From: Allokutzneria sp. A3M-2-11 16
GTDB lineage: Bacteria; Actinomycetota; Actinomycetes; Mycobacteriales; Pseudonocardiaceae
Assembly: GCF_024213555.1 (NCBI RefSeq)
Contig: NZ_JANAVO010000003.1
Span: 372,001-436,000 of the forward strand
Length of the DNA stretch: 64,000 nt
Reading direction: 5' to 3'
In this document: in pieces, positions 24,677 through 40,030 of the stretch
How the letters are laid out: each line of letters starts with the position of its first letter
How positions within the stretch are numbered: the first letter of the stretch is position 1
Notes under the pieces: model-generated
Databases searched by the model: none
The model's input: only the letters and a program-made list of their open reading frames with translations
What the model was told of the DNA's origin: nothing
Made by a program: the position numbers and the translations under genes

Positions 24677-25729
24677 GTGAGTGGCTTCGACGCGGTGCTG
24701 GTGTTGTCCTTCGGCGGACCGGAGGGACCGGACGAGGTCCGGCCGTTCCTGGAGAACGTGGTGCGCGGCCGGGGTGTCCCGCCCGAGCGGCTGGACGCGG
24801 TCGAGGAGCACTACCAGCACTTCGGCGGCGTCTCGCCGATCAACCGGCTGAACCTGGCGATCATCGACGCGGTGCGCGCCGAGCTGGACCGCCGCGGCAT
24901 GGACCTGCCTGTCTACTTCGGCAACCGGAACTGGCACCCGATGGTGGAGGACACCGTCGCGAAGATGGCCGAGGACGGCGTCAAGCGCGCGCTCGTCTTC
25001 GCCACCAGCGCATACGGCGGCTACTCCGCGTGCCGCCAGTACGACGAGGACATCGAGCGCGCCCGCGCCGCGGTCGGCGAGTCAGCGCCGGAACTGGTGA
25101 AGCTGCGGCACTTCTACGATCACCCGCTGTTCATCGACGCGTGCACTGACGCGGTCCTCGCCGCGCGCGCGGAGCTGCCGGAGGCCCAGCGCGCCGCCGC
25201 CCGCCTCGTCTTCACCGCGCACTCCGTGCCGACGAGCGCCGATCGCGCGTCCGGTCCGCCCGCGGAGGGTGGTCACCGCTACTCGCGGCAGATCGCCGAG
25301 GCGTCGCGCCTGGTGTCGCTCGAAGCCGACATGCCGCACTACGACGTGGTCTGGCAGTCCCGGTCGGGGCCGCCGCAGGTGCCGTGGCTGGAGCCGGACA
25401 TCGTCGACCACCTCGACGCGCTCAACCGCGACAACGTCAGCGCGGTGGTGGCGTGCCCGATCGGCTTCGTCAGCGATCACCTCGAAGTCATCTGGGACCT
25501 GGACACCGAAGCCCGCGAGCACGCGGAGAAGCTGGGCATGGCGTGGGCGCGCGCCGGAACCGCCGGACCTGACCCGCGCTTCGCCGAGCTCGTCGTGGAA
25601 CTGATCCGCGAGCACACCGAAGGCGTTGCCCCGCGCAGGCTTTCCGCGCTGCCGCACGGGGGTTGCACGGTGAACGGAGCCCCGTGCGCGCCGTTGTGCT
25701 GCGAGCCGCAACGCCGCCCTACGAGGTGA
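24677..25729 (+). CDS. hemH: Ferrochelatase (coproporphyrin III type), with [2Fe-2S] cysteines
   Basis: About 350 residues. Ferrochelatase signatures are [73 protein letters not shown] and [17 protein letters not shown]. The C-terminal [15 protein letters not shown] keeps the cysteines that carry a [2Fe-2S] cluster in actinobacterial enzymes. In actinobacteria the enzyme inserts iron into coproporphyrin III (also called CpfC). The GTG at 24677 is favoured by a GGGGAGG site (24661-24667) at good spacing. The 3' end overlaps the convergent lanthipeptide transporter gene by 11 bp. Confidence 0.95.
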
Positions 25730-27518
25730 CCGGCTCGTCGAGGTAACCGGCGGCCTGGAGGCGGAAAAGGTTGGCGTAGACGCCATCCGTCGCCATCAGG
25801 TCGCCGTGCGTGCCCTCTTCGAGCACCCGGCCGTGGTCGATGACGACGATGTGGTCGGCGGCCCGGACGGTGGAGAAGCGGTGCGCGATCAGCAGCGTGG
25901 TCGCGCGCCCGGCGATCTCGCTCATCCGCGCGAAGATCTCCGCCTCGGCCGCGGCGTCGATGGCCGCGGTCGGTTCGTCGAGCACCACGATCGGCGCGTC
26001 CCGCAGGAAAGCCCTGGACAGCGCGACCTTCTGCCACTGGCCGCCGGAGAGCTGGCTGCCCCCGGCGAACCACCGGCCGAGCTGGGTGTCCAGCCCCTGC
26101 GGTAGATCCTCCACGAAGGACAGTGCGTCGGCCCGGCCGGCGGCACCGCGGATCGCGGCGGTGTCGTCGAGCTCGCTGGCCCGCCCGAACCCGATGTTCT
26201 CCCGCGCGCTCGCCTCGTACTGCACGAAGTCCTGGAAGATCACGCCGATGTTGGCGCGCAGGTCCGCAAGGTCGTACTCGGTCAGCGGCACGCCGTCGAT
26301 GAGGATCTGCCCGCCGGTCGGCTCGTAGAACCGGGCCAGCAGCTTGACCAGGGTGGTCTTGCCCGCGCCGTTCTGGCCGACGAGCGCGACGCACTTCCCG
26401 GCGGGCAGCACGAGGTTGAGGCCGGAGAGCACCGGGGTTTCGGTGCCGGGGTAGGTAAAGGAGACGTCGCGGAACTCGATGCCCCGGCTGAGCACGGGCG
26501 GGAACGGGCGCGTGCCGCAGGCCGGACCGCCCTCCTCGATGTCCAGGAAGCCGAACAGGTTGCCCAGGAACAGGTTGTGCTCGTAGAGCATGGCCATGCC
26601 GCCGAAGAGCGCCTGCACGGTGGACTGCACGAGGGTGATCGCGGACAGGTAACCGGCGAACTGCCCGACCTGCCCGGAGGCCATCGTGACCTGGAGCGCG
26701 TAGAGCGTCGCGCCGACCGCCGCGCAGACGCTGAGCAGGCCCAGTGCCCCGGACACCACGGCCTGCTTGCGTTCCAGGTCGCGGTCGACCCGGTAGAAGC
26801 GGTCGATGAGGTCGCGGTAGCGGCCGAGGAACAGCGGCCCGAGCCCGAAGAGGTGGGTCTCCTTGAACGAGCGGTCGTTGGTCACCAGGAACTGGAGGTA
26901 GGTCGCCCGGCGGCGGTCGGCCGACCGCTCGTTCTCGATCTTCCAGCCGACCCGGCTGTAGAACACCCTGCTGGCCATGGAAGGCAGCGGTGCCAACAGG
27001 ATCGCGATCGCCACGCCGACGTTCCAGGACAGCAGCACCACGCTGACCGCGATCAGCGACACCGCGCTGGAGACGGTGGTGATCAGGTGCGCGAAGATCT
27101 GGTAAGGCCGGTAGGCGGCCTCGCGGCTGGCCCGCTGGAGGCGGTCGTAGGTGGTGGAGTCCTCGAAGTGCTCCAGCCGCAACCGCGTCGCCTTGGCCAT
27201 GATCCGCTCGTTGACCGTGTTGGACATCCGCAGCTGGAGCAGGGTTTCCAGGTAGTTCCGGCCGATCGCCAGCACGTGCGTGAGCACCATCAGCCCGCAC
27301 AGCGCCACCCCGGCGGTGAACGCGCTGTCCACCGCGGCCGGCGCGCCCCGGCTGGCCACGGCGTCCGCGACGCCCTGCACGGCCAGCGTTGTCAGCTGCA
27401 CCGTGGCCGCGGGCAGCAGCGATGCCAGCGCCGCCACCGTGATCACGCCGCCGACGTGCCAGGGGCTGACCTCCCAGAGCAGCCTCAGCGCGCGGGCCCA
27501 GTTGCCCCGGTCCTTCAT
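25719..27518 (-). CDS. ABC exporter of the lanthipeptide locus (LanT-like, no peptidase domain)
   Basis: A 599-residue fused exporter. An N-terminal six-helix membrane domain (residues about 20-320) is followed by an ATPase domain with Walker [10 protein letters not shown] (about 383), signature [15 protein letters not shown] (about 488), Walker [10 protein letters not shown] (about 511) and the H-loop IAHRFS. There is no N-terminal C39 peptidase domain, so it exports without cutting the leader. Its ATG overlaps the LanB stop by 4 bp (ATGA), which ties it to the lanthipeptide operon. Likely role: export of the modified peptides or self-protection. Confidence 0.88.
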
Positions 27519-30500
27519 GCGGGCCGTCCCTTGATCAGGCGCAGGGCGAGCGACCACAGCTGGTAGCACTCGTTCTCCCGCTCGTTGTCGATGCCCAGCA
27601 ACCGGTTGGCCTGCATGTGCGCCAGGCTGCCGAGGACGCGGCCCTCCGTGCCCACCAGGCGACCGGCGGCGGCCAGCTCGCGGACGCGCTCCCCGGCCGC
27701 GCGCAGGCTTTCCCGTTGCCCGGCGAGGATGGTGGTCAGCGCGTCCAGGTGCTGCCGCGCCACTGGATCGGGGTGCGCGTCCCAGGGCTCCAGCAGGTCG
27801 CACAACAGCGTCCGGACTTCCTTGAACCGCGTGCGCATCGCATCCGGCACGGTGTCCACAGTAGACGGAGCGGCACCCCAGTCCCGGTACAGGGAGTGCT
27901 GGGCCATCGTGCACACCACGTCCGGCGAGAGGTCCGGGTTGGCGCGCAGGTACCGCACCAGGCCCGCGCAGACGGCGCTGTTGGCCTCGAAGGTGGCCTC
28001 CACCGCGTCGTACGCCTCCGGTCCGCCGTAGCGCTCCAGCTCGACGTCGTAGCTCGACAGCGCGATGTCGTTGGCCAGCCCGGCTTCCACGACCTGCTTC
28101 CCCCAGGCCAGCACGCGCGCCAGCACGCCGGGGACGGCGCCCGGATCGGGCACGTGGAGCCGGAACCGCAGGTGCGGGTAGGGATCGGCGTAGCGGATGA
28201 AGAACCACCGGTCCACCACGCCTTCCGCGCGCAGTGCCGCGGCCAGCTCGGGCATCGGTCCGCCGACGATGTCGTCGTGCTGGGTCAGCGCCGAGTACAG
28301 CTTCAGGTAGATCCACTCATCCCCGGCCAGTCGTCGCCGGGACGCCGCACCGTGCGCGGGCGGATCGAGCGCGACCGGCTTGCGCCGCACCGACTCCTCG
28401 GTCCTGGCCAGCATTGGCACCACGATCTCGGAGAAGTACCCGCGACCGTCCACATCGGACAACCACGCCTGGGAGAAGTCCGGGAGCAGCTCGTGCAGCA
28501 CGACCGGCCGCTTCTGGTCCGCTCGCCTGGCCCGCGCCAGCTCGGCGTGCAGCTCCGCCACGCAGAGCGGGTGCTCCAGGTCGAGGGCGAGCCGGTTGTC
28601 GAACACGGCGAGGAAAACGTGCCGCGGCACCCGCCACTCCGCGCGCCAGCGGCTCAGCGACTCTGCGAACTCGGCGCCGTCCTCGGGGAACTGGTGGGTG
28701 AACAGGTGCCAGCGCGCGGGGGAGAGCACGATCCGCCCGCGCCGCACGCGGGGCAGATGGGGGAAAGCGGTGGCCGCGCCCCAGTCGAAGTCGGCGAGCG
28801 GGGCGAACCCGTCCTCCGACAGCTCCAGCAGGAAACGGCAGACGTTCGGCGCGGTCGACGGGTTGAGCATGTGCCCCTGGGTGACGCGGAGTTCCTTGTC
28901 CAGCCGCCGCGAGCGCAGGTAGAAGCGGTCCACCGTCGCGCCGACCACGATGTCGGACAAGAGGATCTGATTCTCCTCCGGCACGGAGGGCGCGGTGTTC
29001 ACGCAGATCTCGTAGCTGCGCACCTGCGGGTGCACCGCCACGTTCCCGTTGCGGCCCCGTGGTGAGGCGTAGCTGAGGTCGGCGAAAACGAGATCGGGGC
29101 AGAGCGCTTCCTCCGCGCGGGCGAACTCGCGCAGCTCGGCCAGCGCGGACCCGTCGACCAGGTCGAAGAACCTGCCGAACGTGCGACCGCCGTCCGTCAT
29201 CGTGCCGGGGGCCACGACGAACCGGTAGTCACCGGAGTCCACCGCCTCGCGGGAGGACGCCGCGACCTGCGCGTACAGGTCCAGCGAGGGGCGGCACCGG
29301 GCCTGTTCCCCGGTCGGCCGCCACGTCGTGAGCCGCTCCAGCAGCTCATCGGTCAGCTCGATCTCGTCCTGACCGCTCCGCAACGCCTCGGCCAGTACCG
29401 GCATCAGGATCAGATCGCGAGAGTTGTCGCGCTCGTTCGCCATGCGCGGCAACGGGGTCGTGCGCGTCGGCATGGTGTAGGTCGCCGGGGCGTCCAGGCC
29501 GCGCTCCGGGCTGAGCAGGTCCAGCACCGGGACCTCCGCGCCGATCCCGTACCGCTCAAGGAAAGCGGTGTGGTACTCGACGAGGTGCGGTCGGCGCTTG
29601 GCCGAGGAACCCACTCGTAGCAACAGTTCCGCGGCCTCGGCCGCATCCGCGGCGACCCGGGACGACAGGTCCGCGTCGGTGATGGCCAGCGCGGTGTCGA
29701 GCTGGAAGGTGTCCTTGGTGTGCTCCGGCGCCATTGCCCGCTGCTGCCGGACCAGTTCGTCCACAGTGGACACGTCCGCGCGGCCCGCGCACTCGTCGAC
29801 GGCGGTGGCCAGCGCACGCGTCCGCTCCAGGCCGTCCCGCACCTCGCCCTGGTCGAGGCGCTTGAGGAGGTCCTGCTCCGGCAGGGCCACCGTCATCGCC
29901 GGGCGGAGGTCGCTGGTCAGCACGTGCAGGTCCCAGAGTTGCTTGACGAGGCCGCGGGCCTTCGCCCCGGTGGCGCCGGGAACCTCCTCGACGATGCGCC
30001 GCGCGATGTCGCCGACCGTGGTGCCCGGCCTGCCCGCCATGCGCACCGCGATCGCGGCGGGCGCGGTCAGCCGGAAGCCGATGTTGCGGTTGTCGGCCTG
30101 CCCGTGCACGTCGGCGTAGGGCAGCACGGCTCGGTCGCCGACCTGGTAGAGCATCGGGTGCACCGCGACGCGGGTTTCGTCGGGGAACGCCTCGTCCTCG
30201 TCGAGGCCCTTGATCACGGTCAGCAGCCAGCCGAGGTCCGCGCGCGTGCGGGTGCGCCCGACCGGATCGGCGGCCAGCGCGAGCGTGGTCCGCTCGGCGA
30301 ACCGGCCGACCCCGATGCCGGAGAACAGCCCGTACGGCGTCGGCCGGGTGGACATCCTGGCCAGGTAGCGGAGCAGGGAGGAGTACGCGCGCGCGGACTT
30401 CTTGGAGGAACCGCCGAGGTGGGCCAGACCCGCGGTCAGGCTCGGGCTCGCGACGTGCAAAGCCTGTCGCACCAACGGTTCTTCGGCCAGTTCGCGCAGT

Positions 30501-30613
30501 CGCCGTCGCGCGTCGTCGGCCGAGCCACCGGTGATCGACAGGAACTCGTCCGCGGGCAGGGTGGGCGTGCGCACCATGAAGAACCCCGCCGCGCGGTAGA
30601 CCGACTCGGTCAT
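27515..30613 (-). CDS. lanB: Class I lanthipeptide dehydratase LanB, full length
   Basis: A 1032-residue enzyme of the length usual for full LanB proteins. The N-terminal lantibiotic-dehydratase region (FFMVRTPTLPADEF, then YGLFSGIGVGRF) corresponds to the glutamylation domain that uses glutamyl-tRNA to activate Ser/Thr. From about residue 765 the SpaB-type elimination domain follows (EWIYLKLYSALTQHDDIVGG, RWFFIRYADPYPHLRFRLHV). The fused elimination domain differs from split-LanB systems. It modifies the FxLD-type precursors encoded upstream. A GGAG site precedes the ATG at 30613, and LanC ends 19 bp upstream. Confidence 0.93.
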   Translation of the reverse strand: MTESVYRAAGFFMVRTPTLPADEFLSITGGSADDARRRLRELAEEPLVRQALHVASPSLTAGLAHLGGSSKKSARAYSSLLRYLARMSTRPTPYGLFSGIGVGRFAERTTLALAADPVGRTRTRADLGWLLTVIKGLDEDEAFPDETRVAVHPMLYQVGDRAVLPYADVHGQADNRNIGFRLTAPAAIAVRMAGRPGTTVGDIARRIVEEVPGATGAKARGLVKQLWDLHVLTSDLRPAMTVALPEQDLLKRLDQGEVRDGLERTRALATAVDECAGRADVSTVDELVRQQRAMAPEHTKDTFQLDTALAITDADLSSRVAADAAEAAELLLRVGSSAKRRPHLVEYHTAFLERYGIGAEVPVLDLLSPERGLDAPATYTMPTRTTPLPRMANERDNSRDLILMPVLAEALRSGQDEIELTDELLERLTTWRPTGEQARCRPSLDLYAQVAASSREAVDSGDYRFVVAPGTMTDGGRTFGRFFDLVDGSALAELREFARAEEALCPDLVFADLSYASPRGRNGNVAVHPQVRSYEICVNTAPSVPEENQILLSDIVVGATVDRFYLRSRRLDKELRVTQGHMLNPSTAPNVCRFLLELSEDGFAPLADFDWGAATAFPHLPRVRRGRIVLSPARWHLFTHQFPEDGAEFAESLSRWRAEWRVPRHVFLAVFDNRLALDLEHPLCVAELHAELARARRADQKRPVVLHELLPDFSQAWLSDVDGRGYFSEIVVPMLARTEESVRRKPVALDPPAHGAASRRRLAGDEWIYLKLYSALTQHDDIVGGPMPELAAALRAEGVVDRWFFIRYADPYPHLRFRLHVPDPGAVPGVLARVLAWGKQVVEAGLANDIALSSYDVELERYGGPEAYDAVEATFEANSAVCAGLVRYLRANPDLSPDVVCTMAQHSLYRDWGAAPSTVDTVPDAMRTRFKEVRTLLCDLLEPWDAHPDPVARQHLDALTTILAGQRESLRAAGERVRELAAAGRLVGTEGRVLGSLAHMQANRLLGIDNERENECYQLWSLALRLIKGRPA

Positions 30614-30632: not shown

Positions 30633-31877
30633 CTATGCCAGCAGCAGTGCGCGAGTCCACCGCTTGTCGATGTCCCCGGTCGCGGTGAGCAGCGCGAGCG
30701 CCACTCCCGCCGAGCCGGTGAGCAATGAGGGATCGTCCATGCCGTCGCCGCGCACGATCAGCGGCGCGTCCTCGTCGCAGTGCGAGAGCACGTGCTCGGC
30801 CAGTTCCCCGACGCTGTCCCGGGCCACCGCGCTGTGCTCGGAGAAGACGGCGCAGATGGGGATGAGCCCGGCGGCGCCGTGGCACAGCGGGACCTCGGGC
30901 AGGCCGTCGAAGCTCCGCAGCGCGGACTCGAACCCGTCCACCGCGACAGCGCGAACAGTGTTGTCCCGCAAGGAAACGGAGGCGTTCAGCAGCGCGGACG
31001 CCACACCGGGGGCGCCGTAGCACCACGCGAGCCTGCCCGGTTCGAGATGATCACGGTCCTCGGTGCCGGACTCGGTCAGCGGCACACCGGCGGGCCACTT
31101 GCACGGCAGGTCGACGAGGTAGTCGGCGGTGCGCCGAATCGCCTCCACGATTCCGCCCCGGTGATATCCGGCTTGGTGGGCGAGGGAAAGCGCGCTCAGC
31201 GGGCCGGGAATGCCATGTGCCAGGCCGGTGTTCACATAACCGTGGGGATATCTGTCCGAATAGGACTCAAGCGGGAACAGGCGTGGCGGGATGAACCAGC
31301 GCTCCGGCTCGCACAGCCACACCAGATCATCGATCAGCACGTCGATCGCTTGCCGCACAAGGGGCTGCGGATCGGTGACGGTGATGAGGTAACCGAGCGT
31401 CCCCGCGGCTCCGGAGATCGCGTCGTAGTCGCTGTCGCGCACGCCGTCGTCCGAGCGCCAGCTCGGTGAGTCGACCACCTGCTCGGCCAGCTGGACGTCG
31501 AGCTTGTCGAGCGTGCCGCCGTAGCGGGGCTCCTCGCGCAGGGAGTCCGCGAAGGCGAAGGCCAGCCCGGCGGTGCCCGCGGAGAGGCCGGGATGGCTCA
31601 GCGGTGCGGAGAAGCTGGCCTGTGCCGCGGCGACGAGGTGCTGGTGGGCCAGTCCGCGCCAGTGCGCGGCCTCGGCCGGGAACGCGCGGTGGGCGGCCTG
31701 GAAGGCCACGGCGCTGCCCGCGGGTCCGGTGAACAGTCCCGGTCCGCCCCAGCCGAAGGGGTGGGTCGCGCGCTGCCGGGAGGCCGCGACCGCGTCGGCG
31801 ACCGCCACGGGGTCGGCCAGCCGGGTCAGCATCAGCCTCGCGGTGTCCCGCGCACGCTCAGCCAGGGCCGGGTGCAC
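30633..31877 (-). CDS. lanC: Lanthionine synthetase C-like cyclase LanC
   Basis: About 414 residues forming the alpha/alpha toroid of LanC cyclases. Zinc ligands are visible: Cys in LAWCYGAPGVASA (about residue 285) and Cys-His in PLCHGAAGL (about 331-332). Other family motifs are HPGLSAGTAGLAFAF, GLAHGIPGPLSALSLA and DPSLLTGSAGVALALL. It adds cysteine thiols to dehydro residues to close thioether rings. The GTG at 31877 is chosen because AAGGAG (complement of 31886-31891) is 8 nt upstream; ATG 31883 is an alternative but only 2 nt from that site. Confidence 0.92.
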   Translation of the reverse strand: MHPALAERARDTARLMLTRLADPVAVADAVAASRQRATHPFGWGGPGLFTGPAGSAVAFQAAHRAFPAEAAHWRGLAHQHLVAAAQASFSAPLSHPGLSAGTAGLAFAFADSLREEPRYGGTLDKLDVQLAEQVVDSPSWRSDDGVRDSDYDAISGAAGTLGYLITVTDPQPLVRQAIDVLIDDLVWLCEPERWFIPPRLFPLESYSDRYPHGYVNTGLAHGIPGPLSALSLAHQAGYHRGGIVEAIRRTADYLVDLPCKWPAGVPLTESGTEDRDHLEPGRLAWCYGAPGVASALLNASVSLRDNTVRAVAVDGFESALRSFDGLPEVPLCHGAAGLIPICAVFSEHSAVARDSVGELAEHVLSHCDEDAPLIVRGDGMDDPSLLTGSAGVALALLTATGDIDKRWTRALLLA

Positions 31878-31923
31878 CCGCATCACTCCTTGCCCGATCG
31901 TTTGTGCGTCCCAGTGCGCAGGG

Positions 31924-31961
31924 CCGGGTGTCGCGGCGATCGGCGCGGCCGCGACACCCGG
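31924..31961 (-). terminator. Intra-operon hairpin between lanthipeptide precursor and lanC
   Basis: A 14-bp perfect inverted repeat (31924-31937 CCGGGTGTCGCGGC and 31948-31961 GCCGCGACACCCGG) with a 10-nt loop, starting 14 bp beyond the stop of precursor 1 and ending about 45 bp before lanC. No T-run follows. Hairpins at this place in lantibiotic operons act as partial terminators or mRNA stabilisers that keep precursor levels above enzyme levels; that role is inferred here. Confidence 0.6.
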
Positions 31962-31975
31962 GGCTCAGTACGTGG

Positions 31976-32113
31976 TCAGCAGAGGTAGATGGTGCACCGC
32001 AGGGAACACATGACCTGGGTGAAGGTCATGGCCTCGGCGTCGTGCTGCTCGCCGGGCGCGGTCACCCGGACGTCGAGGTCGAACTGGTCCAGCGCTGCCT
32101 GATCCGGATTCAT
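31976..32113 (-). CDS. FxLD-type lanthipeptide precursor 1
   Basis: A 45-residue peptide too short for usual ORF calls. The ATG at 32113 is preceded by GGAGAGG at good spacing. The leader contains DQFDLDVRV (FDLDV at residues 11-15), the recognition motif of FxLD-family class I precursors and related to the FNLD box. The C-terminal core region, from about residue 29, has Thr30, Thr32, Ser37 and Thr41 and three cysteines (Cys36, Cys40, Cys45; ending SLRCTIYLC), enough for three thioether rings. It is the closest precursor to lanC. The leader cleavage site is not evident, and no protease gene is in the locus. Confidence 0.85.
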   Translation of the reverse strand: MNPDQAALDQFDLDVRVTAPGEQHDAEAMTFTQVMCSLRCTIYLC

Positions 32114-32223
32114 GGGCACCTCTCCTTGTCGGACAACAACAAGGAGGGACGTTCCGGCCCGGGCACCGTCGCGGGCAATACACGATCGGAGCCCCGAATT
32201 TTAGGCTTCCGGCAGACCGGACA

Positions 32224-32253
32224 GCGGGACCCGGACTCCGGCCCGGGTCCCGC
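32224..32253 (-). terminator. Hairpin after lanthipeptide precursor 2
   Basis: An 11-bp perfect inverted repeat, GCGGGACCCGG (32224-32234) and CCGGGTCCCGC (32243-32253), with an 8-nt loop, located 7 bp past the stop of precursor 2 and before precursor 1. It may terminate or stabilise the precursor mRNA. No T-run is present, so function is inferred from position and symmetry. Confidence 0.5.
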
Positions 32254-32260
32254 CGCGTGA

Positions 32261-32419
32261 TCAGTTACCCGGCGCGGAGGTGGTGATGCCGCACTGCCCA
32301 CCGCCGCAGGTGAAGCACGACCGGAGGGTGGTGGTGCCACCGGTGGCGAAGCCGTCCGCCTGCTCGCGCGGCGTGGACACGCGCACGTCGAGGTCGAACT
32401 GGTCCAGGTCCGGGTTCAT
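32261..32419 (-). CDS. FxLD-type lanthipeptide precursor 2
   Basis: A 52-residue peptide starting at ATG 32419 behind a GAAAGG ribosome-binding site. The leader holds DQFDLDVRV (FDLDV at residues 8-12). The core is Gly/Thr-rich: GFATGGTTT at 23-31, then SCFTCGGGQCGITTS from residue 34 to 48. Cysteines are Cys35, Cys38 and Cys43; candidate dehydration sites include Thr26, Thr29-31, Ser34, Thr37, Thr46, Thr47 and Ser48. The leader is nearly identical to that of precursors 1 and 3, while the core is unrelated, as expected when one set of enzymes serves several peptides. Confidence 0.87.
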   Translation of the reverse strand: MNPDLDQFDLDVRVSTPREQADGFATGGTTTLRSCFTCGGGQCGITTSAPGN

Positions 32420-32466
32420 CGTGGTGCCTTTCGAAGTCTGCGATCAGGACCGGGCCGGAAGCGTGA

Positions 32467-32574
32467 TCAGCAGGGCCAGGTGGGGCACTGGAAGATCGCG
32501 GTCTTCGCGAGGGTCTCCGAGTCGCCGAACTCGCGCGGGGTGGTGACGTTGACGTCGAGGTCGAACTGGTCCAT
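32467..32574 (-). CDS. FxLD-type lanthipeptide precursor 3
   Basis: A 35-residue peptide, the shortest of the three and first in the predicted transcript. The ATG at 32574 has AAAGG 8 nt upstream; an in-frame ATG five codons earlier (32589) lacks a ribosome-binding site. The leader motif DQFDLDVNV starts at residue 2, so the leader is truncated relative to the others. The core carries Ser19, Thr21, Thr25 and Thr32 with Cys30 and Cys35 (ending FQCPTWPC), allowing at most two rings. It shares the TPRE motif after the FDLDV box with precursor 2. Confidence 0.8.
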   Translation of the reverse strand: MDQFDLDVNVTTPREFGDSETLAKTAIFQCPTWPC

Positions 32575-32670
32575 GGCCGTGCCTTTCATCGAGTGGAAAC
32601 TTCTCCACCACTGTGCCTGTTACCTCGTCGTGACTTGGCCCGGTCATCGAAGACGCTGAAGGCCGGACGA

Positions 32671-33645
32671 TCACCACTGTCCATTGTGGCTCGTCAGGGC
32701 CTGTGGGCGAACTTTTTTCGCGGACGAGTCCACAGTGGACGAATCGGCGGCCCCCGAATGGTGAAAATCGTTCTGGTGCAGCAGGTCGGTGAACGCGCTC
32801 AGCGCCGGGTTGGTGTTGCCCCGCGCCCAGCACAGCGCGAGCGTCCGCGGGAGGAGGCCGACGACCGGGCGGCTGACCAGGTCTGGGCGCTCGTAGTGCC
32901 GGGAGACGTGCTCGGCGACGAAGGCCACGCAGCCGCTCTGCGCGACCTGGGCCAGCAGCGTCTCCGGGTTGTCCACGCGGGGGCCGGGCACCGGGCTGCG
33001 GCCGTCCGGGCGCGGGTCGACGCGCCAGAAGTCCTGCCAGACCTGCGGAACCTCCGCGCGGTAGGTCGGCACCGGCACCTCGGCGAGATCGTCGAAGGTC
33101 AGGATGTCCTTGTGCGCCAACGGATGATCGACCGCGAGCATGGCCACGCGGTCCTCGACGGTCACCGGGACCACGTGCAGCCCCTCGGGCGGCGTCGGCA
33201 TGCACAGCAGCCCGATGTCGGCGCGGCCGTCCAGTACGAACGCGGGCTGGTCGTGGTAGTCGAAGCGCTGGAACTCCAGGGCGATCTTCGGCTCGGCGAG
33301 GCGGAACCGGCGCAGCAGCTCGGCGAACTCGGGGTAACCGGCGTCGTTGCACAGGAACCCGACGCGGATGCGGCCGCGCAACCCGTCGCGGTACTCCCGG
33401 GCCGCGCGGTCCACCTCCTCGGCCGCGGTGAGCACGGCGCGCGCCTTCACCAGCACCTCCCGCCCGGCCTCGGTCAGCTCGACCCGGCGCGAGTCCCTGG
33501 TCAGCAGTGCCACCCCGAGGCCGCGCTCCAGCCCCTTGACCGCGTGGCTCAGCGCGGGCTGGGACATCCGCAGCCGCTGGGCCGCCCTACCGAAGTGGAG
33601 TTCCTCGGCGACCACGACGAAGTACCGCAGCGTGCGCAGCTCCAT
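32671..33645 (-). CDS. LysR-family transcriptional regulator
   Basis: A 324-residue LysR-type regulator. The helix-turn-helix starts right at the N-terminus (MELRTLRYFVVVAEELHFGR, then LRMSQPALSHAVKGLE); the effector domain follows from about residue 90. The ATG at 33645 is the canonical family start, and GAGGT abuts it; an upstream ATG at 33663 is an alternative. It is divergent from the aldehyde oxidoreductase operon, its likeliest target, and lies upstream of the lanthipeptide operon on the same strand. The C-terminal 30 residues are a non-conserved polar tail containing one iterated palindrome. Confidence 0.88.
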   Translation of the reverse strand: MELRTLRYFVVVAEELHFGRAAQRLRMSQPALSHAVKGLERGLGVALLTRDSRRVELTEAGREVLVKARAVLTAAEEVDRAAREYRDGLRGRIRVGFLCNDAGYPEFAELLRRFRLAEPKIALEFQRFDYHDQPAFVLDGRADIGLLCMPTPPEGLHVVPVTVEDRVAMLAVDHPLAHKDILTFDDLAEVPVPTYRAEVPQVWQDFWRVDPRPDGRSPVPGPRVDNPETLLAQVAQSGCVAFVAEHVSRHYERPDLVSRPVVGLLPRTLALCWARGNTNPALSAFTDLLHQNDFHHSGAADSSTVDSSAKKVRPQALTSHNGQW

Positions 33646-33770
33646 ACCTCGGATGATAGCCATTCCGTATCGCTCGATTCGTTTCCTGTCTTGGACAACT
33701 TCAATTGCCGCCCATGAGACTGAACGCGTTCCCGGGCTTTTGGTCAGCATTGTGAAATGGGTGTGAAGAA

Positions 33771-34400
33771 ATGCGAGAAAAGGCTTCCACGTTTGCCGGA
33801 GAACCGGAACCGTCGGGACCCAACCGCCGCACCGTCCTCGTCGGCGCGGTCGGTGCGGGCGTCGCCGGGACCGCGCTCGCCGGGGTCGGTGTCGGGCTCG
33901 CCGCGCCCACCACGGCGCCGCCCGCCCCGCAGGAGACGCTGCCGGTGACGCTGACCGTCAACGGTGTCCGCAGGTCGGCGCCGGTCGATCCCCGGGCGAG
34001 CCTGCTGGACACGCTGCGTGACCAGTGGGGCCTGACCGGTCCCAAGAAGGGGTGCGACCAGGGCGCGTGCGGCGCGTGCACGATGCTGCTCGACGGCACC
34101 AGGGTGCTGTCGTGCATCAGCCTCGCGGTCCTGCACGACGGTCAGGAGATCACCACTGTGGAAGGTTTGGTGGCAAAGGGGGAAATGCATCCCGTGCAGC
34201 GCGCGTTCGCCGAACGCGACGGTTTCCAGTGCGGGTTCTGCACCTCCGGTCAGGTCACTTCGGCGGTGGGTCTGCTGAAGGAGAACCCCCGGCCGTCGCG
34301 AGCCGAGATCTCCGAGCTGATGAGCGGGAACCTGTGCCGCTGCGCGGCCTACTCCAACATCGTCGACGCGGTCGCCGACGCGGCGAGGGGTGAGCGCTGA
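33771..34400 (+). CDS. paoA: Aldehyde oxidoreductase iron-sulfur subunit (PaoA-like)
   Basis: A 209-residue subunit with two [2Fe-2S] clusters. The plant-ferredoxin-type cluster has CDQGACGACTM plus a later Cys (VLSCIS); the second is in the helical domain (QCGFCTSGQ and LCRCAAY). An N-terminal extension with NRRTVLVGAVGAGVAGTAL is a Tat-type signal, as in E. coli PaoA, suggesting a periplasmic/extracytoplasmic complex exported folded with cofactors. It is the first gene of a four-gene operon with overlapping stops and starts. Confidence 0.92.
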   Translation: MREKASTFAGEPEPSGPNRRTVLVGAVGAGVAGTALAGVGVGLAAPTTAPPAPQETLPVTLTVNGVRRSAPVDPRASLLDTLRDQWGLTGPKKGCDQGACGACTMLLDGTRVLSCISLAVLHDGQEITTVEGLVAKGEMHPVQRAFAERDGFQCGFCTSGQVTSAVGLLKENPRPSRAEISELMSGNLCRCAAYSNIVDAVADAARGER

Positions 34401-35368
34401 TGCGACCGTTCCACTACTCCCGCCCGGGTTCGGTCGGCGAGGCGGTGCGCGCGCTCGGGGCGGACCCGGGCGCCGAGGTGATCGCGGGCGGCACCGACCT
34501 GGTGACGTTGCTGCGGGACGGGGTCCGCGCGCCGAGCCAACTCGTCGACGTTAACCGGCTCGGCCTGGACCGCCTGTCCTGGCAGCCGAACGGCAGTGTC
34601 CACATTGGAGCGATGTGCCGCAACGCCGTTGACGACAGCCGGTTGCGCCGCGCGTACCCCGGGCTCGTCCAAGCCCTGCGCTCCGGGGCGTCGCCGCAGA
34701 TCCGCAACCGGGCCAGCTTCGGCGGGAACCTGTTGCAGCGCACCAGGTGCGCGTACTTCCGGCTGCCCGAGTTCGACTGCAACAAGCGCAACCCGGGCTC
34801 CGGCTGCGCCGCGCTGAACGGCGACGGCGCGCAGACCGCGTTGTTCGGGGCGAGCCCGTCCTGCGTCGCGGTGCACCCGTCGGACTGCGCGGTGGCGCTG
34901 GTGGCGCTCAACGCGGTCGTGCACGTCGAGGGACCCGCAGGAGCGCGCCGCATCCCGATCGAGGAGTTCCACGTGCTGCCGGGGGAGACCCCGCAGCGGG
35001 AGACCGCGCTGCGCCGGGACGAGCTGGTCGTCGCGATCGAACTGCCCCCGGCACCGCCCTCGCACTACCTGAAGTTCCGCGACCGGACCTCCTTCGCGTT
35101 CGCGCTGGTCTCGGCGGCCGTCGCGGTGGAGGTGAGCGGCGGAACCGTCCGCTCCGCACGGATCGCGCTCGGCGGCGTGGCGGCCAAGCCGTGGAGATGC
35201 CTTGCGGCGGAACGGGAACTGGTCGGCAAGCCGTTCACCGCGCCGTCCATCGCGAAGGCGGGTGACGCCGCAACCGAGGGCGCGAAACCCCGTCCTGGCA
35301 ACGAATACAAGGTCGAACTCGTCCGCAGGGTAGTCCGGCGGGCGCTGACGGAACTGGGGAACGCGTGA
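34400..35368 (+). CDS. paoB: Aldehyde oxidoreductase FAD-binding subunit (PaoB-like)
   Basis: A 322-residue FAD subunit of the xanthine dehydrogenase family. FAD-binding motifs are EVIAGGTDLVTLL and ASFGGNLLQRT. An insert with RCAYFRLPEFDCNKRNPGSG followed by another Cys, and a further Cys in SPSCVAV, matches the extra [4Fe-4S] cluster characteristic of PaoB rather than of ordinary xanthine dehydrogenases. Its ATG overlaps the paoA stop by one base (TGATG). Confidence 0.92.
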   Translation: MRPFHYSRPGSVGEAVRALGADPGAEVIAGGTDLVTLLRDGVRAPSQLVDVNRLGLDRLSWQPNGSVHIGAMCRNAVDDSRLRRAYPGLVQALRSGASPQIRNRASFGGNLLQRTRCAYFRLPEFDCNKRNPGSGCAALNGDGAQTALFGASPSCVAVHPSDCAVALVALNAVVHVEGPAGARRIPIEEFHVLPGETPQRETALRRDELVVAIELPPAPPSHYLKFRDRTSFAFALVSAAVAVEVSGGTVRSARIALGGVAAKPWRCLAAERELVGKPFTAPSIAKAGDAATEGAKPRPGNEYKVELVRRVVRRALTELGNA

Positions 35369-37569
35369 GCGAGCAGGGGATCGGCGCCGCCCTGACGAGG
35401 GTCGAGGCGAGGGACAAGGTGACCGGTGCGGCGCGCTACACCGCGGACGTGGTGCTGCCCGGGATGGCGTACGCGGCGCTCGTCAGCAGCCAGGTGTCAG
35501 CGGGCAGGCTGCGCTCGCTCGATGTGTCGGCGGCGAAGGCGGCACCGGGTGTGCTCGGTGTGTTCAGCCACCTCGACCGGCCGACGTGGCATCGCGTTCC
35601 CGCCATCCCGTACTTCGGCGAGACCCGCATGCCCTTCTCCGACGACCGGATCCACCACGCGGGCCAGCACATCGCCATCGTCGTCGCCTCCACCCGGCAG
35701 CAGGCCGCGCACGCGGCGGCGCTCGTCAAGGCGGAGTACGAGGCGGGCAAACCCGTGCCCACGCTGGAGAAGGCGCTGCCGTCGGCGTATGTGGCGGCGC
35801 AGGGCAACTACGTGAACTTCCCGCAGGAGACCGTCCGCGGTACCCCCGAGGAGGCGCTGGCCGGATCTCCGGTGCGCGTCAAGGCGGAGTACCGCACCGC
35901 GCTGATCAGCCACGCGCCGATCGAACCCTCGGTGACCACGGCGACCTGGGAGGGTGACGAGCTCACCCTCTATGACACCAGCCAGGCCGTCGTGGTGCAC
36001 CGCGGCCTGGTGGCCACGGCGTTCGGCCTGCCGGAGGACAAGGTCCGGCTGGTGTGCCCGCTGATCGGCGGGGCGTTCGGGGCGAAGACGCACGTCTGGG
36101 GGCACACCCTGCTCGTCGCGCTCGCGGCCCGGCGCCTCGGCAGACCGGTCCAGGTGGTGATCACCAGGAAGCAGATGTTCACCACCACCGGGCACCAGCC
36201 GCCGACCGTGCAGCGGATCGAGATCGGCGCCGAGCGCGACGGCAGGTTGCGGGTGATCACCCATGACAGCACCAACTCCACGTCCTTCGTCGCCGAGCGC
36301 CCGGAGAACACCGTCCTGTCCTCGGTCGCGACCTACGCGGTGCCGAACCTGCGCACCCGGGTGCGCCTGGCGCGGATGAACTTCGGCACGCCGACAGCGA
36401 TGCGCACGCCGGGCGACGGCCCCGGCAGCTTCGCGCTGGAGTGCGCGCTGGACGAGCTCGCGCACGAGCTGGGCGCCGACCCGGTGGAGCTGCGCCGCCG
36501 CAACCACGCCGATGTGCACCCGCAGAGCGGGAAACCGTGGAGCGGCAAGAACCTCCTGGAGTGCTACCGCATCGGCGCCGAGCGCTTCGGCTGGCACCGC
36601 AGGGATCGGCGTCCCGGCACGCGCCGCGAGGGCAACGACCTGATCGGCTACGGCATGGCCACCGCCCGCCGCGTGGAGCACCACCGCGCCGCGGAGTCCA
36701 CAGTGGACATCAGGACGGACGGTGGCGTCGTCGTCCGCACCGCCACGCAGGACATCGGCGGTGGCACGCTGACCACCATGATCCAGGTCGCGGCCGACGC
36801 GCTCGGCGTGGCGCCGGACAAGGTCACCATCACCGTGGGCGACACCGATCTGCCGCCGGGCGCACCGACCTTCGGCTCGATCACCTCCGGCAGCAACGGG
36901 AGCGCGGTGCGCCTGGCGGCCCAGGACGCCCGCGGCGCCGCGATCCGCCTCGCCGTGGGGGACAAGGGATCGCCGCTGCACGGGCTCGCGGAGGACGCCG
37001 TTGACGTCCGCGACGGGCGGCTGTTCGCCAAGGCCGACCCCCGGCGCGGGGAGACCTATGCCGTGCTGCTGACCAGGAATCGCGTGAACCCCTTGCGCGG
37101 CAACGGGAAGTACAGTCCTGCGGAAAGCCAGTACGAGACGTCCACGTTCGGCGCGCACTTCACCGAGGTCCGCATCGACCGCGACCTCCCGCGAGTCCGC
37201 GTGGTGCGCCACCTCGCGGTCATCGACTGCGGCATCGTGCTCAACACCAAGACGGCGCGGAACCAGGCGCAGGGCGGCATCATCGGGTCGATCGGCGTCG
37301 CGCTGATGGAGGAGCTCCGGCAGGACCCCGTGTCCGGTCGCGCGCTCGCCCCGGCGCTCACCGACTACCACGTGCCGGTGAACGCCGACATCGGCCAGAT
37401 CGACGTGCACTTCGTCAACAAGCCCGACCACAACTCCAATCCGTTGGGCGCCAAGGGGCTCGGCGAGATCTGCTCGATCGGTGTGTCCGCCGCGGTCGCC
37501 AACGCGGTCTTCAACGCCACCGGCAGGCGCATCCGGGACCTGCCGATCACCCCGCGGCGCCTCCTGTGA
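35365..37569 (+). CDS. paoC: Aldehyde oxidoreductase molybdenum-binding subunit (PaoC-like)
   Basis: A 734-residue molybdopterin subunit. It has an N-terminal domain (RVEARDKVTGAARYTADV), Mo-cofactor binding regions (LIGGAFGAKTHVWGHTLLVA, MRTPGDGPGSFALECALDE, ATQDIGGGTLTTMIQVAADA), and the C-terminal catalytic Glu in GAKGLGEICSIG. It oxidises aldehydes (broad, often aromatic in PaoABC) to acids. GTG overlaps the paoB stop by 4 bp. The cofactor is probably of the MCD type because an XdhC-like gene follows. Confidence 0.93.
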   Translation: MSEQGIGAALTRVEARDKVTGAARYTADVVLPGMAYAALVSSQVSAGRLRSLDVSAAKAAPGVLGVFSHLDRPTWHRVPAIPYFGETRMPFSDDRIHHAGQHIAIVVASTRQQAAHAAALVKAEYEAGKPVPTLEKALPSAYVAAQGNYVNFPQETVRGTPEEALAGSPVRVKAEYRTALISHAPIEPSVTTATWEGDELTLYDTSQAVVVHRGLVATAFGLPEDKVRLVCPLIGGAFGAKTHVWGHTLLVALAARRLGRPVQVVITRKQMFTTTGHQPPTVQRIEIGAERDGRLRVITHDSTNSTSFVAERPENTVLSSVATYAVPNLRTRVRLARMNFGTPTAMRTPGDGPGSFALECALDELAHELGADPVELRRRNHADVHPQSGKPWSGKNLLECYRIGAERFGWHRRDRRPGTRREGNDLIGYGMATARRVEHHRAAESTVDIRTDGGVVVRTATQDIGGGTLTTMIQVAADALGVAPDKVTITVGDTDLPPGAPTFGSITSGSNGSAVRLAAQDARGAAIRLAVGDKGSPLHGLAEDAVDVRDGRLFAKADPRRGETYAVLLTRNRVNPLRGNGKYSPAESQYETSTFGAHFTEVRIDRDLPRVRVVRHLAVIDCGIVLNTKTARNQAQGGIIGSIGVALMEELRQDPVSGRALAPALTDYHVPVNADIGQIDVHFVNKPDHNSNPLGAKGLGEICSIGVSAAVANAVFNATGRRIRDLPITPRRLL

Positions 37570-38444
37570 GGTCGATCTTCCCGGACCTCCTTGAACGCCA
37601 AGGGGAACCGGCCGCCATCGCCACCCTCGTCGACAAGACCGGCAGCGCCCCGCTGCCGGTCGGCTCGGCGATGGTGGTGTGGCGGGACGGCACCGTGCGC
37701 GGCTGGATCAGCGGCGGCTGCGTGGATTCCGACGTGGTCGCCGTCGCGGAACGAGTCCTTCTTGACGGGGTCGCCGAGATCCGCGAGTACGGCCCACCAT
37801 CCCTGATGGGCGTCGGCCTGACCTGCGGCGGTCAGCTGCGGGTGCTCGTCGAGCCCGTCTACCCCGAACTGCTGACCGCCGCCGCTGCCGTGGTGTCCGA
37901 TCGGGCGGTTACGCTGAGCACGGACCTTTCGACCGGGTCGCACAGCCTGTCGTGGTCCTCTGGTGAAGGCTTTTCTTTGCATGGCTCGACGTTCGTCGCC
38001 GGGTTCGCGCCCCGGCCGCTGCTCGTGATCGTTTCCGCGACCGCCGTGACGAACCCGTTGGCGCAGTTGGCTTCCTCATTCGGCTGGCGCGTGGTCGTCG
38101 TCGAGCACCGACCCGTTTTCGCGGCGCAGATCTCCTGCGACGTCGTGCCCCGACTGGATGGTCTGGTCCTGGATCGCCGCTCTGCCGTGGCTGTGCTGAG
38201 CCATGATCCGATGGTGGACGTTCCGGCGATCATGGCCGCTTTCGCGGCTTCCTGTGGCTACGTCGGGGCTATGGGGTCCGCTGTGACTCATGTGGATCGG
38301 GTACGGCGGTTGCGTGCGGCCGGGGCGTCGGATGGTGATCTGGCTCGGCTTCGGTCGCCTATCGGGAGTGCGGGGGTGGGTGGGCGCAGTCCGGTGGAGT
38401 TGGCTGTGGCTATCGGGGTTGAGCTTGGGGTTGCCGCGGTGTGA
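37566..38444 (+). CDS. XdhC/CoxI-family molybdenum cofactor chaperone (PaoD-like)
   Basis: A 292-residue protein. The N-terminal XdhC/CoxI domain has TLVDKTGSAPLPVGSAMVV and ISGGCVDSDVV; the C-terminal Rossmann-like domain has YVGAMGSAVTHVDRVRRLR. Such proteins bind the molybdenum cofactor, assist its sulfuration and insert it into the large subunit. The gene overlaps paoC by 4 bp and closes the operon. Codon use near its 3' end becomes less GC-biased, and the following 230 bp are non-coding. Confidence 0.88.
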   Translation: MRSIFPDLLERQGEPAAIATLVDKTGSAPLPVGSAMVVWRDGTVRGWISGGCVDSDVVAVAERVLLDGVAEIREYGPPSLMGVGLTCGGQLRVLVEPVYPELLTAAAAVVSDRAVTLSTDLSTGSHSLSWSSGEGFSLHGSTFVAGFAPRPLLVIVSATAVTNPLAQLASSFGWRVVVVEHRPVFAAQISCDVVPRLDGLVLDRRSAVAVLSHDPMVDVPAIMAAFAASCGYVGAMGSAVTHVDRVRRLRAAGASDGDLARLRSPIGSAGVGGRSPVELAVAIGVELGVAAV

Positions 38445-38678
38445 GCTTGTGGCTTTGGACTGGCCAGCCTGATTCGGTTGGGTTGATGGCTTGCGTTCGC
38501 TGAGGCCTGGCGCCGCCAGGCGTCTGGCTCAGCGTCGACGTGTTCGACCATGCCGTCCTCGTGCACTGCGTGCCGGAGAAGTTCCGCAACCACGCGAGAA
38601 TCGAGAATGTGTTGGGGCGCTTGGGAAATTCACTCCTTAGAGCCATGATCGACTATTTTCGCGCGATAAAATGTGGTT

Positions 38679-39800
38679 ATGCCCCATGGTGAATTGCTCG
38701 ATGCGATCAAGGCTGCCAGTCGCAAACTGAGCGCGGCGAAGGCCGATCTTGCTGTCGCGTGCCGGGACTACATGAATCAGGTCGAGGGTGGTGACTACAA
38801 CTACATGGGTTCGGAGGTCGGTCCTGAACTCGCGATCTCCCGTCGTAAGGCGGATGCGATGTTGTCGCGCGGGTACGAACTGACCGAGCGTCCGGCGATT
38901 TTGTTGGCGATGGCCGAAGGCCGGATCGACGAAAGCAAGGCGCTACTGATCCTGGACCAGATCAGCGTCCTCTCGGAGAGCCACAAGGTGATCGTCGAAG
39001 ACGACCTCCTGGAATACGCGGAAACTCGCACGTACACGTCGGTGCGCAGGCATGCTCAGACGGTGATCCACAAGCTCGACCCGGATGCCGCGCTGCGTCG
39101 GCACAAGAAGGCGACCAAGGAACGGGCGGTGGAGAAGCGCGATCTCGATGACGGCATGTCCTCGCTCCGCTTCGTGGTACCCGCGCTGGAGGGGGTGTTG
39201 ATCTATGACCGGATCGATCGGATCGCCCGAGCGTTGCCGAAGGATGACCGGACGTTGGACCAGAAGCGCGCCGACGTAGCCATGGATGTGTTGCTGGGCA
39301 AGGAAACCGGCGCTCCCCAGGGTGAGGTTCGGGTGTATCTGACCATGCCCGTCACCAGTGTCATCGGCATGAACGATGACCCGGCGATGCTGCACGGCTA
39401 CGGACCCCTGCCCGCCGAGATCGCCCGCGACGTCGCCGCTGGTGGGATCTGGAAGCGCATCCTCACCGACCCCGTCACCGGCATGGCCGAAGAAGTCAGC
39501 GATGTCTACCGGCCGACCGCCAAGCAGCGGGAACTCATCGCGGCCCGGTTCCCCAGGTGCACCGCGATCGGCTGCCAGCAGCCCGCACACCGCTGCGACC
39601 TGGACCATTGCTGCCGCTACGACGGGACCAACACCACGGTCAAGAACTTGCGGCCGAAGTGCAGGCACCACCACCGGATGAAGCACGAAACCAGCTGGCG
39701 CTGCGAGAACCTCGACGATGGACGGCACGTGTGGACCTCACCCAGGGGGAAGGTCTACGAAACCGAACTGGAGCCCATCGCCGAACCCGCACCCTTCTGA
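38679..39800 (+). CDS. DUF222-domain HNH endonuclease family protein (13E12-repeat type)
   Basis: About 373 residues. The N-terminal two thirds match DUF222 (13E12 family), with AISRRKADAMLSRGYELTE and ALLILDQISVLSE. The C-terminus has an HNH nuclease-like Zn motif: PRCTAIGCQQPAHRCDLDH, then LRPKCRHHHRMKHE. These genes are multicopy in actinomycetes, often near mobile or repeated DNA; function is unproven. The start is uncertain: ATG 38679 or GTG 38673, with no clear ribosome-binding site. Upstream DNA is less GC-rich, and a family A repeat lies directly downstream. Confidence 0.85.
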   Translation: MPHGELLDAIKAASRKLSAAKADLAVACRDYMNQVEGGDYNYMGSEVGPELAISRRKADAMLSRGYELTERPAILLAMAEGRIDESKALLILDQISVLSESHKVIVEDDLLEYAETRTYTSVRRHAQTVIHKLDPDAALRRHKKATKERAVEKRDLDDGMSSLRFVVPALEGVLIYDRIDRIARALPKDDRTLDQKRADVAMDVLLGKETGAPQGEVRVYLTMPVTSVIGMNDDPAMLHGYGPLPAEIARDVAAGGIWKRILTDPVTGMAEEVSDVYRPTAKQRELIAARFPRCTAIGCQQPAHRCDLDHCCRYDGTNTTVKNLRPKCRHHHRMKHETSWRCENLDDGRHVWTSPRGKVYETELEPIAEPAPF

Positions 39801-39893
39801 ACCGACGAGCGTCCATAGTGGACAATCGTGGTCGAGCGCAGTGCCGTTCAGCGGCGAGGTGTTGATCCCGTCAAGGGTGTCGTTGTGCACCCC

Positions 39894-40030
39894 GCACACC
39901 ACGTAAACTGTGCCCATGCGCCTCAACCGCCCTCGCACCCCACCCGCGGCGGCCGCAACCTAGGTAACCCCGTTTCGTACTCATAACGGGGAAGAGAGCG
40001 CTCCCAAATCCCGGCAAGAGTACGAAACGG
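39894..40030 (+). repeat. Dispersed palindromic element family A, copy 3 (with mini-ORF)
   Basis: It starts with CGCACACC, then the -10-like TAAACT (39904-39909) and, 6 nt later, an ATG (39916) opening a 15-codon ORF (starts MRLNRPRTP) that stops at TAG 39961-39963. The hairpin core follows: CCCCGTTTCGTACTC (39968-39982), interior GAGCGCTC, and GAGTACGAAACGG (40018-40030). The mini-ORF has the same length as in copy 2 but a partly different sequence, sharing N/T-R-P-x-T-P. The whole 302-bp gap between the HNH gene and the GntR gene contains nothing else recognisable. Confidence 0.8.

What the first reader, a model, noticed from the sequence alone, without database searches (positions are those of the whole stretch)
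31976..32574. Three FxLD-type lanthipeptide precursors with near-identical leaders and unrelated cores served by one LanB/LanC
Hidden between lanC and the LysR gene are three ORFs of 45, 52 and 35 codons, each with DQFDLDV(R/N)V in the leader and good ribosome-binding sites. The cores differ in length, ring capacity (about three, three and two) and composition: one ends SLRCTIYLC, one holds SCFTCGGGQCGITTS, one ends FQCPTWPC. The enzyme set is a single full-length LanB with fused elimination domain plus LanC and an exporter. This suggests combinatorial output from one pathway; products from these cores would probably be new compounds.
Basis: partly seen in the sequence, partly recalled or inferred. 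Interest (0 to 1): 0.72.

Follow-up and report, generated by a model that had tools for sequence, protein, structure and literature searches.

The report
Three-precursor lanthipeptide array, one enzyme set
A soil actinobacterium carries three tiny genes for peptides that share one recognition tag but have different active parts, apparently all finished by a single set of ring-forming enzymes; the arrangement is real and conserved in its genus, but of a kind already known.

Summary
Three ORFs (45, 52, 35 codons) lie between lanC and a LysR gene; they are the only matches in the genome above the cut-off of NF038155, "FDLD family class I lanthipeptide". The generic FxLD motif fits, but the FxLD family TIGR04363 is not matched. 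LanB, LanC and an ABC exporter follow; catalytic residues are kept, and LanB keeps the five MadB residues reported to bond the LDDFDLD part of the leader. Both other genomes held for the genus have the locus in the same place with four precursors; the fourth was lost here. The cores evolve unevenly: C is identical in three species, A keeps its Ser/Thr-Cys pattern and an SLRCTI block, B is remodelled. Stable hairpins after B and before lanC are kept in three species. Of 58 LanB loci scanned in the family, 45 have one such precursor and four have three or more. Combinatorial output is plausible but small; rings, leader cleavage, expression and activity are untested. Five core words occur in no held paper. 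LysR is not a conserved part. New member of a known kind.

The parts
32467..32574 (-). precursor C (35 aa, MDQFDLDVNVTTPREFGDSETLAKTAIFQCPTWPC; leader/core boundary unknown)
   Evidence: NF038155 27.1 bits; identical protein in G001 (2 synonymous codon differences), three differences in G002, all before the last 16 residues
32261..32419 (-). precursor B (52 aa; core region ...TLRSCFTCGGGQCGITTSAPGN)
   Evidence: NF038155 26.9 bits; leader conserved, core remodelled with indels in G001 and G002
31976..32113 (-). precursor A (45 aa; core region ...TFTQVMCSLRCTIYLC)
   Evidence: NF038155 28 bits; Ser/Thr and Cys positions kept in G002 while six of the nine other residues of this stretch change
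30633..31886 (-). lanC cyclase (first in-frame start 31886; true start uncertain)
   Evidence: PF05147 E 9e-40; NisC/MadC homologue with zinc and active-site residues kept
27515..30613 (-). lanB dehydratase, 1032 aa, glutamylation plus fused elimination domain
   Evidence: PF04738 E 4e-162 and PF14028 E 1e-52; closest solved structure MadB 9g04, E 2e-100
25719..27518 (-). ABC exporter (599 aa), start overlaps lanB stop; no peptidase domain among its Pfam matches
   Evidence: PF00005 110 bits, PF00664 26.3 bits; 94% and 92% identical in G001 and G002
32217..32257 (-). hairpin H1 between precursors B and A
   Evidence: RNA fold -34.8 kcal/mol, z -4.2; counterparts in G001 and G002 z -5.8, -5.9 (fragments picked by eye)
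31918..31966 (-). hairpin H2 between the last precursor and lanC
   Evidence: RNA fold -32.5 kcal/mol, z -4.1; G001 z -5.2; G002 different sequence, same shape, z -5.7 (fragments picked by eye)
32106..32151 (-). stretch folding into a hairpin that takes in the ribosome-binding site of precursor A
   Evidence: z -3.9 here, z -2.5 in G001, no such hairpin in G002 (z +1.0)
32666..32760 (-). conserved block upstream of precursor C, probable promoter/operator region (runs under the LysR 3' end)
   Evidence: three-species alignment; coordinates of two sub-blocks
31967..31975 (-). place where precursor D of the sister species is missing (between the stop of A and H2)
   Evidence: alignment with G001 and G002; only three NF038155 places above cut-off in the genome

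Best explanation
This is a class I lanthipeptide gene cluster with a small array of FDLD-family precursors. The shared (L/M)DQFDLDV(R/N)V segment binds the RRE of one LanB dimer. LanB glutamylates core Ser/Thr using Glu-tRNA and eliminates glutamate; LanC adds Cys thiols to the dehydro residues; the ABC protein exports the peptides; an unlinked protease removes the leader. The array had four members (C, B, A, D) in the ancestor of the three species and lost D here, and the cores evolve at very different rates under one enzyme set. Hairpins after B and before lanC probably keep precursor transcripts in excess of enzyme transcripts and divide the array into C-B and A(-D). Shown by sequence: gene content, families, conservation, catalytic and leader-contact residues, predicted hairpins. 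Inferred: expression, ring pattern, leader removal, the role of the hairpins, and function as secreted antimicrobial-type peptides.
For: NF038155 matches for all three and, above the cut-off, only these three in the genome. Both LanB domains and LANC_like in LanC. In the printed alignments NisB R83, R87, T89, R464, R784, R786, E823, R826 and H961 and NisC D141, H212, R280, C284, Y285, C330, H331 have identical partners (motifs located; the roles of these positions are recalled; H961 lies in a separate short alignment piece of score -0.4). Of nine MadB residues that PMC12241602 lists as hydrogen-bonding the leader (passages), seven are identical here by the alignment, including all five that touch the LDDFDLD part (R161, R182, T184, K218, Q225). 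In that paper replacing the FDLD box by alanines abolished binding (section 10). Orthologous arrays at the same genomic place in G001 and G002. Synonymous-only change in C between G000 and G001, and conserved Ser/Thr-Cys spacing in A. Stable hairpins in three species.
Against: No expression or product data. No protease, decarboxylase or immunity gene among the cluster proteins scanned. B cores are too different to assign rings. H1 and H2 lack a U-tract, and the terminator scan did not report them. Only three species carry this array. The two MadB contacts not matched (E178, S180) fall in a three-residue gap, and of eight listed hydrophobic contacts two are identical, two conservative, three changed and one in the gap (my reading).
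Confidence: 0.85

Rival explanations
1. Only some of the precursors (C and A, whose cores are conserved) give active products; B is a relic or a free-running duplicate that is still tagged but no longer matters.
For: B core diverges fastest, with indels; D has been lost outright in this species, so array members are dispensable.
Against: B keeps its start, leader and several Cys residues (three, three and two in the three species) and, with G001, its CGITTSAPGN tail; the frame is open in three species.
Confidence: 0.25
2. The peptides act together as a multi-component lanthipeptide (as two-component lantibiotics do) rather than as independent products.
For: Operon-like layout, shared leader, C, B and A kept in three species.
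Against: D is lost in one species without loss of the rest; resemblance to known two-component cores was not tested.
Confidence: 0.2
3. The short ORFs are chance reading frames in GC-rich intergenic DNA.
For: Short ORFs are common in such DNA (one search lists 23 ORFs of at least 20 aa overlapping 1.5 kb).
Against: Three NF038155 matches, conserved in order and sequence in three species; reversed-sequence control 0 of 58.
Confidence: 0.01

Closest known systems
FDLD family class I lanthipeptides (NCBIfam NF038155) and the maddinglicin system MadA/MadB/MadC, whose leader carries an FDLD box
   Same: FDLD leader box, LanB closest to MadB among solved structures, residues touching the box kept, separate LanC
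   Different: three (ancestrally four) precursors here; actinobacterial; cores differ. MadA itself was not scored against NF038155 here
NAI-107/microbisporicin-type clusters of actinobacteria (name and features recalled; similar precursors seen in L083-L086, L093, L101)
   Same: FDLDL-type leader beside LanB; precursor A has adjacent five- and four-residue Ser/Thr-to-Cys spacings like the nisin A/B rings (recalled)
   Different: no SxxxCTPGC core; C-terminal Cys but no decarboxylase among the cluster proteins scanned; several precursors
Six-precursor FDLD array of G221 (L082)
   Same: same order: precursor array, lanC, lanB, ABC exporter; near-identical leaders within the array
   Different: LanB 38% identical; leaders LDDF(D/E)LDI(R)(I/V)GD; cores end in Cys-Cys; six members
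Prochlorosins and other class II multi-precursor systems
   Same: one enzyme set, shared leader type, unrelated cores
   Different: class II enzyme, 29 precursors reported for prochlorosins (PMC12328550, passages)
FxLD family (TIGR04363)
   Same: generic FxLD leader motif
   Different: model not matched by any of the three precursors, nor elsewhere above cut-off in the genome

Membership tests
FDLD family class I lanthipeptide (NF038155) | precursor scores above the curated cut-off of 20 bits over the whole 34-position model | tested here: met
   28, 26.9, 27.1 bits, model positions 1-34 in each
FDLD family class I lanthipeptide (NF038155) | FDLD box that binds the LanB RRE | tested here: inconclusive
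   box present in all three; MadB residues touching the LDDFDLD part (R161, R182, T184, K218, Q225) identical in this LanB; binding not measured
Class I lanthipeptide cluster | LanB with PF04738 and PF14028 | tested here: met
Class I lanthipeptide cluster | stand-alone LanC cyclase with zinc ligands and active-site residues | tested here: met
   (roles of the residues recalled)
Class I lanthipeptide cluster | (methyl)lanthionine rings in the product | not testable with these tools
   needs mass spectrometry
FxLD family (TIGR04363) | match above the cut-off of 30 bits | tested here: not met
   not among the matches up to E 10 of the three precursors; best match in the genome 16.6 bits, on another contig
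NAI-107/microbisporicin type | core with SxxxCTPGC and a Cys-rich end with CC (recalled) | tested here: not met
   core sequences
NAI-107/microbisporicin type | flavoprotein decarboxylase (AviCys) (recalled) | not tested
   none among the cluster proteins scanned; genome not searched for it
Combinatorial (prochlorosin-like) biosynthesis | one enzyme set shown to modify several unrelated cores | not testable with these tools
   gene layout fits; needs reconstitution

The most novel reading that the evidence does not exclude
A long-lived lanthipeptide cocktail in which one LanB/LanC pair serves cores under different selection: C frozen (its last 13 codons are identical in DNA in three species), A held in ring pattern and an SLRCTI block, B diversifying between species, with the dose of each set by conserved hairpins and, in two species, a sequestered ribosome-binding site. 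It would be a natural class I test bed for how leader-guided enzymes tolerate core change. Codon bias of a GC-rich genome may account for part of the DNA identity of C.
Probability: 0.3. Interest if true: 0.55.

Novelty: new member of a known kind. Interest (0 to 1): 0.4.

Why it matters
Class I systems with several unrelated cores under one enzyme set are, to my knowledge, less studied than class II systems such as the prochlorosins. Three species with the same array, one core frozen and one remodelled, give ready-made substrates to ask what a LanB/LanC pair tolerates. The products may be new antibacterial scaffolds. Interest is moderate because class I clusters with several precursors are already on record (PMC7268733, passages).

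Tried and rejected
Rejected: chance ORFs. Rejected: membership in FxLD family TIGR04363. Rejected: LysR as a conserved cluster regulator. Neither sister genome has a match at E <= 1e-60. In the fetched flanks residues 305-359 have a 78% counterpart in G001 and 324-359 a 61% counterpart in G002 (the conserved upstream DNA read in frame); the only other matches there are 28% hits, i.e. other LysR-type genes. Rejected: the GTCCACTGTGGAC palindrome in the upstream block as a dedicated operator, since it occurs 405 times in the genome. Rejected: the second PF04738 protein (contig 22) as a partner: 115 bits against 543 for the cluster LanB, and no NF038155 place above cut-off on that contig. Its neighbourhood was only skimmed.

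Led nowhere: promoter and terminator consensus scan (no promoter; one terminator-like site on the other strand, below the shuffle mean). Literature on Allokutzneria lanthipeptides (3 papers, listing only) and on class I arrays (20 of 68 listed, 15 of 105 listed). Class-wide sample for NF038155 (1 of 394, the window genome itself).

Limits of the census: 58 loci, chosen from the LanB matches listed, mostly full-length ones with E of about 7e-74 or better; matches lacking the C-terminal part, and weaker ones, were left out. G221 was included because its genome carried an NF038155 hit elsewhere (L081), which favours finding arrays. Some genomes give two loci and L091 is a 7.6-kb contig. Nine of 58 loci had no hit with the strict motif; a looser scan of 42 of the loci found a candidate in five of these nine and at most one per locus. 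In some searches only part of the first-look candidates was scored (150 of 205; 19 per genome), and one search did not report the G221 array, so the NF038155 counts are lower bounds.

Full report
What is there. On the minus strand, in order, lie a LysR gene (32671-33750), precursor C (32467-32574), B (32261-32419), A (31976-32113), lanC (30633-31886), lanB (27515-30613) and an ABC exporter (25719-27518, ATG overlapping the lanB stop). All three precursors score above the curated cut-off of NF038155, FDLD family class I lanthipeptide: 28, 26.9 and 27.1 bits against 20. The same model run over the 8.8-Mb genome gives these three above the cut-off and no other (150 of 205 candidates scored). LanB has PF04738 and PF14028, LanC is PF05147. 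Its family name needs correction: the separate FxLD model TIGR04363 is not met.

Enzymes. The closest solved structure to LanB is MadB (9g04, E 2e-100), then MibB and NisB. In the printed alignments the NisB glutamylation positions R83, R87, T89, R464 and elimination positions R784, R786, E823, R826 are identical in this LanB, and H961 in a separate short piece of score -0.4. NisC D141, H212, R280, C284, Y285, C330 and H331 have identical partners in LanC (the roles of these positions are recalled, and the solved NisC chain is numbered six lower). In the MadB-leader structure the segment LDDFDLDVKVKA is resolved, and the paper lists nine residues that hydrogen-bond it (PMC12241602, passages). 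Counting along the alignment, seven of the nine are identical here: R161, R182, T184, K218 and Q225, which touch the LDDFDLD part, and G177 and D785. E178 and S180, which touch the two lysines that follow, fall in a three-residue gap; the window leaders lack those lysines. Of eight hydrophobic contacts two are identical (I176, P186), two conservative (I181 to F, F222 to L), three changed (F187, I213, I219 to A, G, A) and one in the gap. Precursors A and B have LDQFDLDVRV and C has MDQFDLDVNV at the matching place. In the same paper an FDLD-to-AAAA leader showed no binding (section 10). Leader recognition by the cluster LanB is therefore the likeliest reading; it was not measured.

Relatives. 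The genus is Allokutzneria by a named 84% LanB match (L016, strain NRRL B-24872); the equal contig length of 76,635 bases suggests that G002 is that strain. Three genomes of the genus are held, the window's included, and all three have the cluster. It sits between hemH and the DUF3097-nfeD-SPFH genes in each (gene names are my own readings of the ORFs). LanB identities are 90.9% (G000-G001), 84.7% (G000-G002) and 85.3% (G001-G002), so G000 and G001 are closest. G001 and G002 each have four precursors: C, B, A and D. D (MNPDQN..DQFELDVRV..SPITSCKACPPGAR, its last 17 residues the same in both) lies between A and lanC. It is missing here, with the hairpin before lanC still in place. Given the identities, loss in this species is the simplest account.

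How the members evolve. Precursor C is identical in protein between G000 and G001 (33 identical codons, 2 synonymous, 0 other). Against G002 it differs at three positions, all before the last 16 residues; the last 13 codons are identical in DNA in all three species. GC-rich codon bias may explain part of that. Precursor A is nearly the same in G000 and G001 (4 amino-acid differences, none in the last 17 residues). Against G002, 18 codons differ in meaning, yet the Ser/Thr and Cys positions stay: T-F-T-Q-V-M-C-S-L-R-C-T-I-Y-L-C against S-L-S-V-F-A-C-S-L-R-C-T-I-V-G-C. Six of the nine other residues change; L, R and I stay. That spacing allows adjacent rings of 5, 4 and 5 residues; the first two match the recalled A/B ring spacing of nisin, which is a prediction only. 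Precursor B keeps its leader but its core changes length and many residues (12 of 48 aligned codons differ in meaning between G000 and G001, 20 of 49 between G000 and G002). LanC (82%, 70% identical) changes faster than LanB (91%, 84%) and the exporter (94%, 92%).

Regulatory anatomy. A hairpin (32217-32257) follows B and another (31918-31966) precedes lanC. I picked the fragments by eye. Both are far more stable than shuffles here and in both sisters (z -4.1 to -5.9), and the lanC hairpin of G002 has a different sequence with the same shape. Neither has a U-tract and the terminator scan did not report them. I read them as attenuators or processing hairpins that keep precursor above enzyme; this is inferred. 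The ribosome-binding site of A is taken up in a hairpin in G000 and G001 (z -3.9, -2.5) but not in G002 (z +1.0). The upstream block 32666-32760 is conserved in all three species and runs under the 3' end of LysR. LysR itself is not conserved: neither sister genome has it at E <= 1e-60, and in G001 only a C-terminal remnant remains at this place.

How unusual. NF038155 was found in 14 of 390 Pseudonocardiaceae genomes and in 1 of 394 sampled from the class, the window genome itself; both are lower bounds, since 19 candidates per genome were scored. In 58 LanB loci of the family a motif scan found no FDLD-type precursor in 9, one in 45, three in 1 (window), four in 2 (the sisters) and six in 1 (G221, L082); reversed sequences gave none in 58. 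The loci were chosen as told in Tried and rejected. The G221 locus has the order six precursors, lanC, lanB, exporter (genes read from the ORFs and the match). Arrays are uncommon in this sample. [quoted passage not shown]

Mechanism and limits. The best account is standard class I chemistry guided by one leader type on several cores. Leader removal would fall to an unlinked protease; class I clusters without one are on record (PMC8960859, passages). Rings, activity, co-expression and joint action are not shown. Five core words were found in no held paper; this is not a search of a RiPP database.

An incidental result may be of wider interest than the finding. The 13-base palindrome GTCCAC(A/T)GTGGAC, one copy of which lies in the conserved upstream block, occurs at 405 places in the genome, against none for the same pattern read backwards. 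Of 25 Pseudonocardiaceae genomes in a sample of relatives, 12 have 50 copies or more; two genomes of other families in the order have 237 and 74. In a phylum sample the other genomes have at most two sites each. It resembles the highly iterated palindromes of cyanobacteria; see Noticed in passing.

Noticed in passing
window 17991, 29759 (inside lanB), 32728, 36696, 44466 (13-base sites); genome-wide in G000: GTCCAC(A/T)GTGGAC is a highly iterated 13-base palindrome: 405 sites in 8.8 Mb against 0 for the backwards control. Of 41 genomes (window genome and relatives) 29 have it, 12 have none; 12 of the 25 in the family have 50 or more copies, up to 640 in one 6.6-Mb genome, and two of other families in the order have 237 and 74. 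In a phylum sample 14 of 296 have any, and apart from G000 at most 2 sites each, about the level of the control (up to 3). In 150 kb of Allokutzneria DNA TCCACnGTGGA is seen 15 times against 0.14 expected from base composition, the next palindrome of that form 18-fold over. By coordinate three of five window copies lie in genes (lanB, an oxidoreductase ORF, an nfeD-like ORF); the lanB copy is kept at the matching place in G001 and G002. It looks like a counterpart of cyanobacterial HIP1. PMC4390886 on HIPs does not contain Actinobacteria or GTCCAC; the rows shown of searches (20 of 37; 8 of 1,380) name no such report.
   Followed up: partly
L082 (G221), 3529-4902: Six FDLD-type precursors in a row with near-identical LDDF(D/E)LDI leaders and Cys-Cys ends, followed by lanC, lanB and an ABC exporter; not reported by NF038155 at E <= 0.001.
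   Followed up: partly
L083, L084, L085, L086, L093, L101: Single precursors in three genera closely resembling NAI-107/microbisporicin cores (S(I/V)S(L/Y)CTPGCTS.GGGS.CS.CC type; name recalled).
   Followed up: no
L071 4479-4655 and L072 3995-4171: Near LanBs 57% and 56% identical to the window's lies one FDLE-leader precursor with a long, very Cys-rich core, showing how different a core a related LanB may serve.
   Followed up: no
window 32671-33750: The LysR reading frame ends inside the conserved upstream block of the array; its last 33 residues lie beyond the Pfam LysR match (which ends at 326 of 359) and are probably promoter DNA read in frame.
   Followed up: partly
window 33771-42116: Oxidoreductase genes and neighbours between the array and DUF3097 (one subunit matches 4-hydroxybenzoyl-CoA reductase beta-type models; other names from ORF reading) had no counterpart above 35% identity in the fetched stretches of G001 and G002: a variable insert beside the cluster.
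   Followed up: partly
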